The translations under genes and the position numbers were made by a program. A DNA stretch of 53,160 nt from Clostridia bacterium (lineage in GTDB: Bacteria > Bacillota > Clostridia > Oscillospirales > CAG-272), in assembly GCA_017456005.1 (NCBI GenBank), contig JAFTLJ010000002.1:1-53160 (forward strand), in the 5' to 3' direction. Position 1 is the stretch's first letter. Every line of letters begins with the position of its first letter. This document shows positions 35,063 to 40,095 of this stretch, piece after piece. The notes below the pieces were generated by a model, which worked only from the letters and a program-made list of their open reading frames with translations, did no database searches and had not been told where the DNA came from.

Positions 35063-35098
35063 AAAAATGCTTCCCCTTTTTATAGGGGAAGCATTTTT
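35063..35098 (-). terminator. Terminator of the HTH regulator gene
   Basis: Stem AAAATGCTTCCCCT / AGGGGAAGCATTTT with a T run on both strands. It begins at the stop codon of the gene at 35097. Confidence 0.85.
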
Positions 35099-35543
35099 AC
35101 GCTATGCCGAGCCTGTCTATAATTATATCCTCGGCGTGTACGGGAGAAACTTGATGCCTGTTTAGAATCTTCACAAGCTCGGCTACAAAATTTTTGTCGG
35201 TGCTTATGTCGTCGCAATAAAAATCTGTGTTATTGAAATTCTGTAAAAGTTTTATTCCATATGTATCGGTGTAGCCGACGTATTCGATATATTTGCGGAT
35301 AGGTACACAGACATATTCGTATTTTGTGTCGCTTTCTTCCGAAACAAGTTCGGCAACGCTGTAGTTTGTGCCCTTGCTTAGCTTATCGAGCATATCGACG
35401 CTTGTGTTGCAGTCGGCACGGGAAATGCTGCCCATATAACGCGCACTTATATCGCAGTTAAGAGCCAATTTTTCTATGGAAAGTTTTTCTTTATCGCATA
35501 TTTTGCGCACATTGTTTGCAATTTTTTCTTTTGTGGGTTTCAT
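35097..35543 (-). CDS. HTH domain (Cro/CI-like) regulator
   Basis: A 148-residue protein. The N-terminal helix-turn-helix (about 5-65) reads IANNVRKICDKEKLSIEKLA, then LNCDISARYMGSISRADCN as turn and recognition helix. The C-terminal 75 residues are unassigned and include YVCVPIRKYIEYVGYTDTYGI and a closing alpha-helical part. GAGGAG before the ATG at 35543 decides the start; the frame is open for 51 more codons. It has its own promoter and terminator. It lies between a sugar operon and the sigma-factor cassettes and could regulate either; there is no direct evidence. Confidence 0.75.
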   Translation of the reverse strand: MKPTKEKIANNVRKICDKEKLSIEKLALNCDISARYMGSISRADCNTSVDMLDKLSKGTNYSVAELVSEESDTKYEYVCVPIRKYIEYVGYTDTYGIKLLQNFNNTDFYCDDISTDKNFVAELVKILNRHQVSPVHAEDIIIDRLGIA

Positions 35544-35805: not shown

Positions 35806-35835
35806 ATTATGCGACTATCGCGTGGTTTTCCTTAT

Positions 35836-35868
35836 ACAAAAAGCAGAGATTTGAAATCTCTGCTTTTT
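35836..35868 (-). terminator. Terminator of the left sigma cassette
   Basis: Near-perfect stem AAAAGCAGAGATTT / AAATCTCTGCTTTT with a T run, 26 bases after the stop at 35895. Confidence 0.85.
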
Positions 35869-35894
35869 GCGTAATTAGAACGGTTTTCGCTATT

Positions 35895-36308
35895 TTACCA
35901 AGACGCGGTTTCCTGATACGGAATAACATCATCTTCACCGCCCGTGCCTGAAATTGTATATGTAACTGTGCATCTGTAGGTGCCTTTTTCTTCTAGCTGA
36001 TATGTAAATTCGTTATCATAATTATCAACATATACAACATATATCTCGTGCCTTGCGTTTTCCCAGAAAAACAAGAAATTTCTTTTTTCAATATGTATGT
36101 CAACTTCAATTCTTGTGGTTATTCCTTCATATCCCAAACAATCAACCGATACTATTGCCAATCCTGAATCATTAATAACAAATGCAGTATGTGTAGCAGC
36201 GGTATTATTGTTAAACAATTCTATGTTATCATTTGCTGATACGGATATTGAAAGTATACTTGAAATCAATATTATTGTAGCAATAATCAATGATAGTTTT
36301 CTTTTCAT
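35895..36308 (-). CDS. Small secreted protein of the left sigma cassette
   Basis: A 137-residue exported protein. The signal peptide is MKRKLSL plus a hydrophobic core, with cleavage after SVSA near residue 25. The mature part is beta-rich with IEKRNFLFFW, a Cys pair and a conserved C-terminus ending TASW. Of the last 32 residues, 23 are identical to the paralogue at 39632-40042. GGAG lies 6 bases before the ATG at 36308. It follows the candidate anti-sigma gene by 24 bases and closes the cassette. The family is unrecognised; it may be the effector or ligand of the sigma circuit, which is inference. Confidence 0.75.
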   Translation of the reverse strand: MKRKLSLIIATIILISSILSISVSANDNIELFNNNTAATHTAFVINDSGLAIVSVDCLGYEGITTRIEVDIHIEKRNFLFFWENARHEIYVVYVDNYDNEFTYQLEEKGTYRCTVTYTISGTGGEDDVIPYQETASW

Positions 36309-36332
36309 TATGTTCTCCAAAGTGGCTCAAAT

Positions 36333-37013
36333 TTAATATGTCACGTTTTTTATTATATTTGTAATATCTTCATTGGAAAAATAATTTGGTATATACAATC
36401 TAAACGAATACTCATTATTATTCCAATACAAAATTCTTTTATCATTTTTCTCTATAACTGAAACATTAAAATTTAATATCTTTATGACATTATAAGAAGA
36501 ATTTTGAAAATCCAATGTTTCATTACCAGATAATATGTATTGGTAAAAAATAATTTCATATTTTCCGTTTTCCCATATACTTTTACTGTAAATGCTATTA
36601 TTCTCCCTACCAACAAACTCATACCCCTCCAGTACATAGCCGAGAGTATAGATTTCTTCAATAGCATCAGGAGAATTTTCTATTTCGTCGTCGCCGAAAA
36701 AGATTTCCACGAACTTTTCATATACGCTTACGAAAAATTCTACAACGGGTTCTCGCACGGCTTCTATCGTCATAGATGAAGCAAACAGCATGGCCACAAT
36801 CAGAATGCAGGCGACAGCCCGCTTGCCTGCCGTGTTGAAATATCGAAAGTACGGCTTTCTTTGCTTTGCGAGCAGTTTTTCCATATTCTTTTTGTATCGC
36901 TCGGAAAATTCAAAATCTTCTTTTGGAATATTCAAATTGTTCAGTTCCTCTGAATTTATCTCTTTGAATGCATCTTTTAATTTTTGCAATCCTATATTTT
37001 CGCTTTTTTTCAT
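36333..37013 (-). CDS. Single-pass DUF4367-type protein, candidate anti-sigma factor (left)
   Basis: A 226-residue protein: cytoplasmic residues 1-64, one membrane segment at about 65-84, and an outer domain of about 140 residues that begins EEIYTLGYVLEGYEF, the DUF4367 pattern. No zinc-binding HxxxCxxC motif of classic anti-sigma factors is present. The first 105 residues are almost unchanged in the paralogue at 38927-39613 while the outer domain has diverged. Its start overlaps the sigma gene stop in an ATGA, the usual layout for a sigma/anti-sigma pair. Confidence 0.78.
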   Translation of the reverse strand: MKKSENIGLQKLKDAFKEINSEELNNLNIPKEDFEFSERYKKNMEKLLAKQRKPYFRYFNTAGKRAVACILIVAMLFASSMTIEAVREPVVEFFVSVYEKFVEIFFGDDEIENSPDAIEEIYTLGYVLEGYEFVGRENNSIYSKSIWENGKYEIIFYQYILSGNETLDFQNSSYNVIKILNFNVSVIEKNDKRILYWNNNEYSFRLYIPNYFSNEDITNIIKNVTY

Positions 37014-37564
37014 TGAAAACCTCTTTCTTGTAATATGAAAATAAGTAGATCTCGTCCGCGGTGCAGGCGTTGCCGTGCAGCTGATGCTTTTATCCCGAGT
37101 ATGTTTGCAATTTCATAGGGGTCGTTTTCGTTAAGAAAATATAAGTTTAAAACGTCTTTGTATATTTCGGGCAGTTTTAAAATACATTCCTTTATTTCTT
37201 CTATACTCGCTTTTTCGCAAAGCTCTGAAAGAACAACATCGCAATCTTCATAATGCAAAGGGAATACGTCCATATCTTCAAAAAACTCGGGCTCTTGCTT
37301 TTTGTTTTCACGGTAATCCTCGGCACGGTACTTAACTACTTTGAAAACGTAGTTTTTCACCGATTTGTAGTGGTTTGCCCTGAACGAAGCAATATTTTTT
37401 GCTACACAAAGCCAGGCCTCCTGGGCAATATCTTCGGCATCATTTTTATTATGAACCAATTTATTTGCGTAATTTACTACATCTTGTTCGATAGACATAA
37501 ACAGATCCTCAAAGGCGAATCTGTCCTTGGCGTCTTCGATAATCGATAGGTAAAAAAACAGCAT
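37010..37564 (-). CDS. ECF-like RNA polymerase sigma factor (left)
   Basis: A 184-residue sigma-70 family protein. Region 2 has LVHNKNDAEDIAQEAWLCV (about 37-55), and region 4 has LPEIYKDVLNLYFLNENDPYEIANILGIKASAARQRLHRGR with the helix-turn-helix. The start ATG at 37564 matches that of the paralogue; a TTG two codons earlier is nearer to GGAG and cannot be excluded. The long leader (about 260 bases) carries the ECF-type promoter and the micro-ORF. Probably auto-regulated. Confidence 0.85.
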   Translation of the reverse strand: MLFFYLSIIEDAKDRFAFEDLFMSIEQDVVNYANKLVHNKNDAEDIAQEAWLCVAKNIASFRANHYKSVKNYVFKVVKYRAEDYRENKKQEPEFFEDMDVFPLHYEDCDVVLSELCEKASIEEIKECILKLPEIYKDVLNLYFLNENDPYEIANILGIKASAARQRLHRGRDLLIFILQERGFQ

Positions 37565-37602
37565 CGTCAATATTCTCCTATTAAAATATTTAATATAGTA
37601 TT

Positions 37603-37630
37603 ATTGTATCATAAAAGAATATTTTTGCAA
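37603..37630 (-). promoter_or_regulatory. Second, sigma-A-like promoter of the left sigma gene
   Basis: On the minus strand, TTGCAA, a 16-base spacer and TACAAT, close to the sigma start. It could give basal expression independent of the ECF promoter. No equivalent was seen at the same place in the right copy. Confidence 0.45.
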
Positions 37631-37722
37631 TTTTACTTTTTAGAAAAGTGTATAAAAACGCTGAAATTTTAAAGAAAAAGGTGATTTGAAATCGAAAATA
37701 GGATTGAATGAACGAAAAATGC

Positions 37723-37755
37723 TTAAGGTATGCCTTTTAGGTCTATGCGGTACAT
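37723..37755 (-). CDS. Conserved 10-residue micro-ORF, left (MYRIDLKGIP)
   Basis: ATG at 37755, stop TAA at 37723-37725, preceded by AGAAAGGGGG with good spacing. The product MYRIDLKGIP matches the peptide MYHIDLKGMP of the right arm at 8 of 10 positions. Four codons (Asp, Leu, Gly, Pro) and the stop codon differ silently. In this copy the frame is also open 16 codons upstream, to an ATG at 37803 after a GAGGGG, which would give a 26-residue product starting MTKNLFC. It lies between the ECF-type promoter and the sigma gene. Leader peptide or signalling peptide are both possible. Confidence 0.6.
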   Translation of the reverse strand: MYRIDLKGIP

Positions 37756-37823
37756 AATTTTTCCCCCTTTCTGCTCGTGGGTGCAAAACAGATTTTTCGT
37801 CATATTTCGCCCCTCTACCTATA

Positions 37824-37852
37824 TATACGGAAAAAAACACGCAAGTGTGACA
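37824..37852 (-). promoter_or_regulatory. ECF-type promoter, left sigma cassette
   Basis: On the minus strand, TGTCAC, a 17-base spacer and CGTATA. It is identical to the right copy over the whole -35 to -10 stretch. The CGTA -10 is typical of ECF sigma factors, so each sigma probably drives its own cassette. Confidence 0.6.
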
Positions 37853-38121
37853 GATTTTTGAAAATTTTTTTATTTTTTTTGAAAAAATTTTATTTTTTAT
37901 TACTTTACAGCTCCAATTTATGTAAAAAACGCAAAAAACAATTTTCTTGATTTACTTACATTCAGCGATGGATCATATTCATAGAGCAAATCTTCGGCTA
38001 TAAAAGCTCCCCCTCTGACGAAATGAGCAAATTTTTACACTTAGCTCATAAGGCATTATAAGCCTCATAATTTTACTGCGAAAAAAATTTTTTAAAATTT
38101 TTTTAAAAATTTCGAAAAATC

Positions 38122-38150
38122 TGTCACACTTGCGTGTTTTTTTCCGTATA
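38122..38150 (+). promoter_or_regulatory. ECF-type promoter, right sigma cassette
   Basis: TGTCAC, a 17-base spacer and CGTATA, identical to the left copy. It reads through the micro-ORF (38220) to the sigma gene (38376), giving a leader of about 220 bases. Confidence 0.6.
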
Positions 38151-38219
38151 TAGGGGTAGAGGGGCAAAATATGGCGAAAAACCTGTTTTGCTCCGAAAAA
38201 AGCAGAAAGGAGAAAAAAT

Positions 38220-38252
38220 ATGTACCATATAGATTTAAAAGGTATGCCGTAG
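38220..38252 (+). CDS. Conserved 10-residue micro-ORF, right (MYHIDLKGMP)
   Basis: ATG at 38220 follows AGAAAGGAG at normal spacing; the stop is TAG at 38250-38252. The product differs from the left copy only at His3 and Met9. The upstream ATG equivalent to the left copy's long form lies at 38171 but is out of frame here by one base, so the short form is the only one shared by both copies. It sits between the ECF-type promoter and the sigma gene, 123 bases before the latter. Confidence 0.6.
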   Translation: MYHIDLKGMP

Positions 38253-38375
38253 CGGCCATATGCAATATTCAATCCTAATTTTTTTGACATTTTTACTTTT
38301 TTCAGCAGAACGTGTTCAAGTGTATTCTTTTTATGTTTAACACATTAAATTGAATTTCAGGAGAATATAGCAACA

Positions 38376-38930
38376 ATGTTAACTTTTTATTTATCGTTGA
38401 TCGAAGATGTTCGGGATGAATTTGCGTTTGAGAGCATATATAGATTGAACGAGAAAGACGTAGTTAATTATATAAAATCTTTGGTTCATAATAAAAATGA
38501 TGCCGAGGACATCGCGCAGGACGTGTGGCTCTGCGTTTGTAAACACATAGAAGGTTTCAGACAAGATCATTATAAATCAGTAAAAAATTACATATTTATA
38601 GTTGCCAAATACAAGGCTTTGGATTTTCTGGAAAAGAAGAAGAAATATGCGGAATGTTTTGAAGATATGGACCTATTTCCCACTTCTTTTTGCGAGAGTG
38701 ATTCCGTTTTATTGAACCTTTGCGCAAAGGCGGAAACAAAGGAAATAATCGAATGTATTCGCTCTTTGCCGCCGATATATAGGGATGTTATAAACCTTTG
38801 TATTCTTGGCAAAAACAATTCAAGAAAAATAGCTGATATGCTGAACTTAAAGCATTCTACTGCAAGACAAAGATTATGCCGCGGCCGCAAGATGTTGATT
38901 TTTCTTCTAAAAGAAAGGGGTATAATATGA
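38376..38930 (+). CDS. ECF-like RNA polymerase sigma factor (right)
   Basis: A 184-residue paralogue of the sigma factor at 37010-37564, with region 2 LVHNKNDAEDIAQDVWLCV and region 4 LPPIYRDVINLCILGKNNSRKIADMLNLKHSTARQRLCRGR. The recognition helix is close to the left copy's, so the two may read the same promoter. AGGAGA lies 12 bases before the ATG, a wide spacing shared with the left copy. The stop overlaps the next gene by four bases. Confidence 0.85.
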   Translation: MLTFYLSLIEDVRDEFAFESIYRLNEKDVVNYIKSLVHNKNDAEDIAQDVWLCVCKHIEGFRQDHYKSVKNYIFIVAKYKALDFLEKKKKYAECFEDMDLFPTSFCESDSVLLNLCAKAETKEIIECIRSLPPIYRDVINLCILGKNNSRKIADMLNLKHSTARQRLCRGRKMLIFLLKERGII

Positions 38931-39613
38931 ATGATAAAGAGAAAATTGGATTGAAAAAACTTCAGGATGCATTCAAAGAGATAAATTCAGAGGAACTGGA
39001 CAATTTGAATATTCCAAAGGAAGATTTTGAATTTTCGGAAAAATATAAAAAGAATATGGAAAAGCTGCTCGCAAAGCAGAGAAAGCCGTATTGGCAATAC
39101 GTTAATACAGCCGGAAAGCGTGCGGTGGCTTGTATTCTCGTTTTCATTATGATTTTTGCTTCATCTATGTCGATTTCTGCATTCCGCGAACCCGTTGTGG
39201 AATTTTTCGTAAACGTGTATGAGCGCTTTGTGGAGATATTCTGCAAGGAAGACGGCACACCCGCTTCTCCCGGCGAAATAGAAACTATATATACCTTGGG
39301 ATATTTGCCCGAGGGGTATGAGTTTGAGAGTAGGGAGATTACGGGAAATATATCTAAATTGATTTTTACAAATGGTAAGAGAAATTTATATTTGATGCAA
39401 CATATATTGAGCACAAACACAACATTTGACAATGAAGAAAGCGATTTTACAATTCAACTTGAAAGCGGAATAAAAGTTGCTATTGCTGAAAAATTTGAAG
39501 ATAAAGCATTATATTGGAATTCAAGCGAATATTCATTTAAATTGGTTGTACCTAAAGAATTTTCTGATGAAGAGTGCATTAAAATAATCGAATCTATAGA
39601 AAAATTAACATAA
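38927..39613 (+). CDS. Single-pass DUF4367-type protein, candidate anti-sigma factor (right)
   Basis: A 228-residue paralogue of 36333-37013 with the same plan: cytoplasmic 1-64, membrane segment about 65-84, outer domain starting ETIYTLGYLPEGYEF. The stretch NTAGKRAVACIL just before and within the membrane helix and the FREPVVEFFV segment after it are conserved between copies; the last 120 residues are much less so. The ATG at 38927 overlaps the sigma stop; the frame is open 17 codons further upstream inside the sigma gene. Confidence 0.78.
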   Translation: MNDKEKIGLKKLQDAFKEINSEELDNLNIPKEDFEFSEKYKKNMEKLLAKQRKPYWQYVNTAGKRAVACILVFIMIFASSMSISAFREPVVEFFVNVYERFVEIFCKEDGTPASPGEIETIYTLGYLPEGYEFESREITGNISKLIFTNGKRNLYLMQHILSTNTTFDNEESDFTIQLESGIKVAIAEKFEDKALYWNSSEYSFKLVVPKEFSDEECIKIIESIEKLT

Positions 39614-39631
39614 ATATATTTTGAGGCAACT

Positions 39632-40042
39632 ATGAAACGTAATTTAAGTTTAATATTAGCTTTGGTTTTGCTTTTAACGTTTGTTTTTCAAACAATAGCG
39701 TTTGCAGGCGATGTAAGTACATGCAATAACAATACATTATCTACGTCTACATCTTTTACAATTTCATCTGTTGGTAAGGCAACAGTAACATATTCATATG
39801 ATGGATATACCAATATTGCAACAGGTGCAACAATTACGATAGTTTTGGAGAAAAGAAACTTCCTTTTCTTTTGGAACGAAGTCCTTACAGATACGGTTAC
39901 GGTTAACGAAGAACGTTATTTGGACGCTTTAATATGCCACCTTACCGAAAAAGGAACATACCGCTGCAAGGTTACATACGTTATTTCTGGCACAGCCGGG
40001 GCAGACGACGTGATAACATTCGAAGACACCGCATCGTGGTAA
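39632..40042 (+). CDS. Small secreted protein of the right sigma cassette
   Basis: A 136-residue paralogue of 35895-36308. The signal peptide is MKRNLSL plus a hydrophobic core, with cleavage after AFA near residue 25. Conserved features are the NNNT segment near 31, LEKRNFLFFW near 75 and the C-terminus ending TASW. TTGAGG precedes the ATG, 18 bases after the candidate anti-sigma gene. Sequence beyond the signal peptide is Thr/Ser-rich and probably an all-beta domain. Confidence 0.75.
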   Translation: MKRNLSLILALVLLLTFVFQTIAFAGDVSTCNNNTLSTSTSFTISSVGKATVTYSYDGYTNIATGATITIVLEKRNFLFFWNEVLTDTVTVNEERYLDALICHLTEKGTYRCKVTYVISGTAGADDVITFEDTASW

Positions 40043-40061
40043 AATGGATGTATAATAAACA

Positions 40062-40095
40062 GTAAAAAACGAGAGGCAAAACCTCTCGTTTTTTA
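40062..40095 (+). terminator. Terminator of the right sigma cassette
   Basis: Stem AAAACGAGAGG / CCTCTCGTTTT with A/T runs, 20 bases after the stop at 40042. Confidence 0.85.

What the first reader, a model, noticed from the sequence alone, without database searches (positions are those of the whole stretch)
35895..40042. Back-to-back duplicated cassette: ECF-like sigma, DUF4367-type anti-sigma candidate, small secreted protein
Seen: two divergent three-gene cassettes with the same order, ATGA overlaps between sigma and membrane gene, and short gaps before the secreted gene. The first 105 residues of the membrane protein (cytoplasmic part, helix and the start of the outer part) are nearly unchanged between copies, while the remaining outer domain has diverged. 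The secreted proteins share 23 of their last 32 residues. Known: ECF sigma factors are commonly held by a co-transcribed membrane anti-sigma. Inference: two related envelope-sensing circuits whose sigma interface is conserved but whose inputs differ, each releasing a secreted TASW-ending protein. I know of no described system with this composition.
Basis: partly seen in the sequence, partly recalled or inferred. Interest (0 to 1): 0.82.

Follow-up and report, generated by a model that had tools for sequence, protein, structure and literature searches.

The report
Paired envelope-sensing sigma-factor gene cassettes
Two back-to-back copies of a three-gene circuit, a gene switch, its membrane lock and a small secreted protein, turn out to be one example of an apparently undescribed gene set that recurs in gut Clostridia and can now be tested in the laboratory.

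Summary
Two divergent cassettes each encode an ECF sigma factor, an overlapping membrane protein (DUF4367 outer domain in copy B, diverged in A) and a small secreted protein. The set is not private to this genome. Of 31 membrane-gene places in other genomes, 30 were examined: a sigma gene lies directly upstream in 29 and the secreted gene follows in 14. An independent class-wide search with the secreted family hit 31 of 291 genomes; of 28 real loci examined, 19 have the DUF4367-type gene directly upstream. The secreted protein has no Pfam or NCBIfam family and models as a beta sandwich. Most likely: RsiV-like envelope-sensing circuits, self-regulated at least here. The secreted protein's role is open; distance correlations do not single out the outer domain as its partner. 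No held paper mentions DUF4367. New variant of a known kind.

The parts
35895..36308 (-). secreted protein A (137 aa): signal peptide and beta-sandwich domain
   Evidence: 46% identical to copy B; in family alignment A1
36333..37013 (-). membrane anti-sigma candidate A (226 aa): cytoplasmic helices, one membrane helix, diverged DUF4367-type outer domain
   Evidence: no Pfam hit on its own
37010..37564 (-). ECF sigma factor A (184 aa from ATG)
   Evidence: Pfam Sigma70_r2 and r4_2, NCBIfam TIGR02937 over cut-off
37723..37755 (-). ten-codon leader ORF A, MYRIDLKGIP, behind a Shine-Dalgarno-like AAAGGGGG
37818..37852 (-). candidate ECF-type promoter A: TGTCAC-N17-CGTATATATAGG
37780..37891 (.). 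arm 1 of the intergenic inverted repeat (promoter and leader region), 86% to arm 2
38083..38194 (.). arm 2 of the intergenic inverted repeat
38122..38156 (+). candidate ECF-type promoter B: TGTCAC-N17-CGTATATAGGGG
38220..38252 (+). ten-codon leader ORF B, MYHIDLKGMP, behind AAAGGAG
38376..38930 (+). ECF sigma factor B (184 aa)
38927..39613 (+). membrane anti-sigma candidate B (228 aa) with DUF4367 outer domain (residues 122-224)
   Evidence: PF14285 40.3 bits; model
39632..40042 (+). secreted protein B (136 aa): signal peptide and seven-strand beta sandwich
   Evidence: mean pLDDT 90.4; no Pfam/NCBIfam family
35825..35881 (-). 28-nt inverted repeat directly behind secreted gene A, terminator-like by eye
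   Evidence: (I4); not listed by the scan
40063..40095 (+). near-palindromic terminator-like hairpin behind secreted gene B
   Evidence: one search lists it on the minus strand (15 pairs); use on the plus strand is by eye
35097..35543 (-). HTH plus DUF6514 protein, recurrent neighbour of the cassette
   Evidence: PF20124 42.1 bits; neighbours in other genomes

Best explanation
Each cassette is an envelope-sensing ECF circuit of a recurrent clostridial type, self-regulated at least in this species and a sister species. The membrane protein holds its sigma at the membrane by its N-terminal helices (inferred from gene order and architecture). Its outer DUF4367 domain senses an unknown signal; on sensing, a V-x-A site at the outer edge of the membrane helix, beside a helix that may lie on the membrane, becomes open to signal peptidase and then to a site-2 protease, which frees the sigma (inferred by likeness to RsiV/RsiP). 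The freed sigma reads the TGTCAC-N17-CGTATA promoters before both cassettes and before two distant loci: C81, a papain-like peptidase with a lectin-like part, and C20, a short secreted gene whose sister-species counterpart carries lectin domains (motif shown, regulation inferred). The small beta-sandwich protein is co-produced and exported as output; it may also act back on the sensor (open). The copies look like a duplication in which sigma and N-part stayed alike while sensor and secreted protein diverged, so they probably answer to different inputs but, with near-identical promoters, feed an overlapping regulon.
For: Conserved three-gene order from two independent searches. ECF sigma by Pfam/NCBIfam and by profile match to SigW (3e-31). 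DUF4367 in 25 of 26 aligned membrane homologues. Promoter motif: loose form at 4 places in the 2.12-Mb genome (both cassettes, C20, C81), backward control 1 hit; longer form with up to three mismatches gives the same 4 places, control none. Sister genome G001 has two sites, at its cassette and before a ricin-lectin secreted gene whose 5' region and signal peptide match the own C20 gene. V-x-A-like site in 34 of 49 homologues against 8.8 in local shuffles. Juxtamembrane segment slightly amphipathic (mean z 0.59 over 49; 12 of 49 above z 1). RsiV and RsiP mechanisms from passages of PMC6066255 and PMC8844934.
Against: The motif is absent from 39 held-out cassettes (strict form 0 of 39; looser spacing 1 of 39, as in shuffles), which include cassettes of the same genus and the own third pair on C14; even in the seven cassettes it was drawn from, only three fit the strict form. 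By count alone two sites in a genome are not exceptional: 11 further genomes of the 97 have one or two, and the backward control hits as freely. The first V-x-A pattern gave 26 of 50 against 17.1; the cited count is from a corrected pattern, homologues are not independent, and 15 of 49 lack the site. Only two cytoplasmic helices are modelled before the membrane helix, fewer than the four of class I anti-sigma domains. DUF4179, the RsiV domain, matches 3 of 26, best E 0.027. 11 of 30 membrane-gene places have no secreted homologue near; 5 of 28 secreted loci show no sigma/DUF4367 pair in the DNA held. No binding or expression data exist.
Confidence: 0.55

Rival explanations
1. The secreted protein is a component of the sensor: an extracellular partner or ligand of the DUF4367 domain that closes a feedback loop, as RseB does for RseA in the rpoE-rseA-rseB operon.
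For: Gene order parallels rpoE-rseA-rseB. The DUF4367 model's next PDB hits after BT_1490 are RseB chains (E 0.0033 to 0.029); hhalign of the family with E. coli RseB gives P 0.0029 and, outer part only, 0.0012, above all 60 shuffles, at the 'YLPEGY' / 'WLPQGF' stretch. The secreted gene stays beside the sensor over many genera, and its distances still correlate with the outer domain when sigma is held constant (0.27).
Against: The RseB likeness lies in the sensor domain, not in the secreted protein; the outer-part match spans 18 columns, and in the full-length run one ORF that I take as unrelated reached the same score (26.7). Mirror-tree: the secreted protein correlates no better with the outer domain (0.40) than with sigma or N-part (0.50 each). 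11 of 30 membrane genes do without it.
Confidence: 0.3
2. The secreted protein is a plain effector of the response (for instance a wall-bound protective protein or an inhibitor of a papain-like peptidase) with no part in signalling.
For: Secreted papain-like enzymes recur: the C81 promoter target has Peptidase_C70 and C39_2 over cut-off, and three secreted-family members outside the usual cassette place stand beside C70, C39_2 or Amidase_6 genes (L106, L098, L100). Foldseek's weak hits include a Bacillus proteinase inhibitor (3isy, E 0.0025).
Against: No fold hit below E 0.001; such sandwiches are generic. A search of all ORFs of the wider loci with three of these peptidases found only one of the three loci beyond self matches, and the ten neighbours scanned by Pfam were picked by eye. 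A pure effector need not stay beside its own sigma so consistently.
Confidence: 0.4
3. The likeness of the N-terminal part is mostly due to gene conversion between the inverted copies, not to a selected shared sigma interface.
For: Residues 1-54: same codon at 35 of 44 identical residues between A and B, 9 of 10 four-fold sites alike; the next 26 residues: 6 of 18 and 3 of 11. The copies form an inverted repeat. In residues 1-54 copy A is nearer to the sister species (44/54 against 38/54), while in 55-80 and 106-end copy B is nearer.
Against: The single cassette of the sister species is as conserved in this part (81-82% over residues 1-105 in all three pairs), so constraint acts too. The neighbouring sigma genes are 60-66% identical in DNA.
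Confidence: 0.3
4. The cassettes are cargo of a mobile element and are kept together by co-mobility only.
For: Patchy distribution (20 of 97 genomes, own included); an ORF that looks like a serine recombinase (recalled likeness, not scanned) lies beside the G003 locus L125 and another in L106.
Against: No match of secreted protein B in 72,556 plasmid records; the order is kept across genera with consistent sigma/membrane overlap. Not tested: recombinases or tRNAs around the window cassettes, and phage carriage (could not run).
Confidence: 0.07

Closest known systems
SigV-RsiV of Bacillus subtilis (passages read: PMC6066255, PMC8844934)
   Same: ECF sigma with co-encoded single-pass membrane anti-sigma; signal-peptidase-type site just outside the membrane helix, followed by a helix
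   Different: DUF4179 not met; neither window membrane protein has another Pfam domain that would be the lysozyme-binding part (its name DUF3298 is recalled); outer domain is DUF4367; a secreted third gene
SigP-RsiP of Bacillus thuringiensis (passages read: PMC8844934)
   Same: Site-1 motif VQS just outside the membrane, compare V-x-A here
   Different: The sensor is a separate penicillin-binding protein, PbpP; DUF4367 and a small secreted partner are not mentioned in the passages seen
rpoE-rseA-rseB-rseC of Escherichia coli (annotation seen)
   Same: Order sigma, membrane anti-sigma, exported protein; upstream leader ORF rseD; DUF4367 model weakly resembles RseB
   Different: Here the RseB-like part is fused to the membrane protein; the exported protein is a small beta sandwich; the leader ORF is ten codons and does not overlap the sigma
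DUF4367 (PF14285)
   Same: 25 of 26 aligned membrane homologues match it
   Different: A domain name without function; also found in M. jannaschii and M. acetivorans among the control genomes
DUF6147 (PF19644)
   Same: 2 of 10 distant secreted relatives scanned match it weakly (E 0.0027 and 0.021)
   Different: Below its cut-off; none of the 19 aligned members, window proteins included, matches at E 0.01

Membership tests
ECF (group 4) sigma factor | sigma regions 2 and 4, no region 3 domain; ECF profile over cut-off | tested here: met
   Pfam r2 and r4_2 over cut-off, no region 3 hit; TIGR02937 80.1 and 76.5 bits against 42.9
Class I membrane anti-sigma factor | co-encoded with its ECF sigma | tested here: met
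   sigma directly upstream in 29 of 30 homologue places examined
Class I membrane anti-sigma factor | cytoplasmic anti-sigma domain, helices 1-3 as a bundle plus helix 4 (PMC7406223, passages) | tested here: inconclusive
   model shows helices 3-26 and 38-52 before the membrane helix 56-80; no anti-sigma domain family among Pfam/NCBIfam hits of the window proteins
Class I membrane anti-sigma factor | binds and inhibits the cognate sigma | not testable with these tools
   no complex prediction or experiment available
RsiV (DUF4179) type | DUF4179 domain over cut-off | tested here: not met
   3 of 26 members match at E up to 10, best 0.027
RsiV/RsiP type site-1 control | signal-peptidase site at the outer end of the membrane helix | tested here: inconclusive
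   V-x-A-like in 34 of 49 against 8.8 expected; an earlier pattern 26 of 50 against 17.1; cleavage not testable
DUF4367 (PF14285) | profile over cut-off | tested here: met
   copy B 40.3 bits, cut-off 22.1; 25 of 26 aligned members at E 0.01; copy A alone not
RseB | separate exported protein with LolA-like and C-terminal domains (recalled) | tested here: not met
   the outer domain is part of the membrane protein; weak fold and profile match only
DUF6147 (secreted protein) | profile over cut-off | tested here: not met
   no match among the 19 aligned members; weak, below cut-off, for 2 of 10 further relatives
Plasmid-borne module | present in plasmid records | tested here: not met
   no match of secreted protein B in the plasmid collection at E 0.001

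The most novel reading that the evidence does not exclude
The small secreted protein is the extracellular ligand (activator or brake) of the DUF4367 sensor made by its own operon, so that each cassette is a self- or neighbour-sensing ECF circuit, and the two diverged copies in this genome are two private channels that feed one shared regulon of secreted lectin and peptidase genes.
Probability: 0.15. Interest if true: 0.85.

Novelty: new variant of a known kind. Interest (0 to 1): 0.55.

Why it matters
ECF sigma factors are a main route by which bacteria sense their envelope, but the signal of many is unknown (established knowledge, recalled). Here a recurrent clostridial circuit brings an unnamed secreted protein family as its third gene, plus a candidate regulon and a candidate cleavage site, so that DUF4367, DUF6514 and the secreted family, none with a described function that I could find, become testable together in one operon. 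31 of 291 sampled genomes of the class (own included) have a match to the secreted family.

Tried and rejected
Rfam scan of the locus: only matches below the curated scores. Promoter motif in other cassettes: not found in 39 held-out ones, six of them from the same genus or the own C14 pair, so the claim is limited to the window cassettes, C20, C81 and G001; likenesses seen by eye before L036, L053, L054 and L060 are not counted. Leader ORF in 97 genomes: only the four known places, in two genomes. RNA structure of the leader: z -1.2 to -1.9 in four sequences, not exceptional, dropped. Mirror-tree for a special bond of secreted protein and outer domain: negative (33 cassettes, three of them with the secreted gene on the other strand). 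Trees: the G003 cassette L118 groups by sigma and N-part with other cassettes (holding it with the window trio: p-AU 0.003 and 0.038) but by outer domain with the window trio (holding it with the others: p 0.011); the secreted protein decides neither way (0.30, 0.40). The groups were named after seeing the trees, so these p-values are optimistic; a hint of domain exchange, no more. Spurious secreted hits in L054 (lipoprotein signal peptides) and L094 (signal-peptide match in a long frame) were dropped; L098 (membrane frame without its start) was dropped from the 49. One of 31 non-own membrane places (G021:C89) and 5 of 34 non-own secreted places were not examined. The first V-x-A pattern was replaced because it stopped at the acidic residue inside IEA/VDA sites. 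Literature: DUF4367, DUF6147 and DUF6514 found in no paper; DUF4179 in 4; the broader ECF searches showed nothing on this gene set in the titles and abstract starts listed; passages of PMC8999054 neither. Only openly licensed PubMed Central papers are covered.


Full report
What is there. Both sigmas carry Pfam sigma-70 regions 2 and 4 and exceed the NCBIfam ECF cut-off; a profile of 27 homologues matches solved SigW at 3e-31. The membrane gene overlaps the sigma stop by ATGA in both. Copy B is DUF4367 by Pfam; copy A matches nothing on its own but aligns with the family, of which 25 of 26 members hit DUF4367. The secreted proteins match no Pfam or NCBIfam family over its cut-off; the scattered weak hits name unrelated families.

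The duplicate. Copy A against copy B: sigma 60/95 then 48/89 identical, membrane residues 1-105 85/105, the rest 50/121, secreted residues 1-104 39/104 and the last 32 23/32. The upstream DNA is doubled too: two 112-nt arms 86% alike in inverse orientation. Residues 1-54 of the membrane protein are conserved beyond what the protein needs (same codon at 35 of 44 identical residues, against 6 of 18 in the next 26), which hints at gene conversion; but the single-cassette sister species G001 (locus L002) is equally like both over residues 1-105 (81-82%), so constraint is real too. In the sister, outer domain and secreted protein are nearer to copy B (54% and 74%) than to copy A (38% and 48%).

It is a recurrent module. 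A search of 97 related genomes with membrane protein B found hits in 20, own included: 34 places, 31 of them outside this genome. I examined 30 of the 31. A sigma gene lies directly upstream, mostly overlapping, in 29. A homologue of the secreted protein follows on the same strand in 14, stands close by on the other strand in 3, is absent in 11, and cannot be judged at contig ends in 2. As an independent test I searched 291 genomes of the class with the secreted family: 31 matched, own included. Of 34 non-own places 29 were examined; one (L094) is a signal-peptide match only. Of the other 28, 19 have the DUF4367-type gene directly upstream on the same strand, and 17 of these show the sigma before it. 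Of the 9 others, two have the pair upstream beyond two intervening genes (L098, L100), two end at a contig border, and five show no pair in the DNA held. One locus, L102, has membrane and secreted genes without a sigma.

Promoter, leader and regulon. Both sigmas are preceded by TGTCAC-N17-CGTATA. In the 2.12-Mb genome the loose form occurs four times, its backward control once; the 35-nt form with up to three mismatches occurs at the same four places, its control never. The other two places stand before a secreted protein with Peptidase_C70 and C39_2 domains over cut-off and a ricin-lectin match just below cut-off (C81), and before a short secreted ORF followed by lipoprotein-like ORFs (C20). 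In sister genome G001 the motif occurs twice, at its cassette and before a RicinB_lectin_2 secreted gene whose 5' region and signal peptide match those of the C20 gene. By count this is not remarkable: 11 more of the 97 genomes have one or two hits, and the control hits as freely; the weight lies in the matching positions. In 39 held-out cassettes, same-genus ones among them, the motif is absent, so self-regulation by it is supported only for the window cassettes and G001. That such a -35/-10 pair is ECF-like is recalled, not from a call. Between promoter and sigma lies a ten-codon ORF with a Shine-Dalgarno-like site: MYRIDLKGIP (A), MYHIDLKGMP (B), MYRIYLNGFT (sister) and, before the C81 gene, MYRIDMKGYT. 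A and B differ in 7 codons, 5 of them silent, the stop included. In 97 genomes its pattern hits only these four places, its control none. A translated leader is likely; its role is unknown. E. coli rpoE also has an annotated leader ORF, rseD.

How it may work. The membrane model has two cytoplasmic helices, a membrane helix (56-80), a following helix (84-99) and a beta domain. At the outer membrane edge 34 of 49 homologues carry a [AVIST]-x-A site just before a basic residue, against 8.8 in local shuffles. The next segment is slightly amphipathic (mean z 0.59, 12 of 49 above 1). In RsiV a signal-peptidase site sits in such a helix and opens when lysozyme binds; in RsiP the site is VQS (passages read). 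I therefore propose site-1 control by signal peptidase. The DUF4367 model resembles BT_1490 (4.7e-4) and RseB (3.3e-3 and weaker). A profile comparison with E. coli RseB gives P 0.0029 and, outer part only, 0.0012 over 18 columns; none of 60 shuffles scored as high. Among 89 control ORFs four scored higher with the outer part: the window's own copy A and three that score like DUF4367 relatives; in the full-length run one further ORF equalled RseB. This is a lead, not a membership.

The secreted protein. It models as a seven-strand beta sandwich, block-mean pLDDT 94-98 in the core; the fold search gives only generic matches, none below 0.001. Three of its relatives outside the usual cassette place stand beside papain-like enzymes (L098, L100, L106), though a search with three such peptidases found no wider spread in the loci held. 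Its distances correlate with sigma (0.50), N-part (0.50) and outer domain (0.40) over 33 cassettes, and with the outer domain at 0.27 when sigma is held constant: it belongs to the unit but is not tied to the sensor in particular.

A fourth gene. The neighbour at 35097-35543 holds DUF6514 behind an HTH; the sister has the same gene beside its cassette. Ten genomes searched hold 20 DUF6514 places, one to three each, 16 over the cut-off; 6 of the 20 lie within 1 kb of a cassette (G000, G001, G003, G005, G022, G048), the G005 copy interrupted by two stops. Five of the ten genomes were chosen because the neighbour had been seen; G005 was not, and G021, G030, G039 and G070 show none.

Verdict. It is a new variant of a known kind: an ECF/anti-sigma circuit with a new exported third gene.

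Noticed in passing
window 35097-35543 (-); L002 4667-5113; L118 2396-2641; L131 2685-2942; L138 3502-3726: DUF6514 proteins, with or without an HTH, recur as a fourth neighbour of the cassette though each genome searched has only one to three copies.
   Followed up: partly
own genome C14:318-4108 (locus L023); G001:C163 (L058): A third sigma/anti-sigma pair in the same genome whose membrane protein has 1081 residues, a long repeat-like outer part without a Pfam match in place of DUF4367, and no secreted gene after it.
   Followed up: partly
window 37723-37755 (-), 38220-38252 (+); L019 6013-6045; L002 5260-5292: Ten-codon leader ORF MY(R/H)I(D/Y)(L/M)(K/N)Gxx behind the promoter-like motif, with mostly silent differences between the window copies.
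   Followed up: yes
own genome C81:6160-9252 (L019): Motif-preceded genes: C70/C39-like peptidase with a ricin-lectin-like part, followed by two similar proteins with signal peptide and a C-terminal membrane helix, both ending RRRGGYHHF.
   Followed up: partly
L143 (G030:C57): A cassette whose secreted protein is 336 residues, the usual domain followed by a cysteine-rich tail.
   Followed up: no
L003, L005: DUF4367-like domains occur in ANME-2 and Methanosarcinales archaea, so the domain is not confined to clostridial anti-sigma candidates.
   Followed up: no
L118 (G003:C216): By sigma and N-part this cassette groups with other cassettes, by outer domain with the window copies: a hint of recombination inside the membrane gene.
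   Followed up: partly
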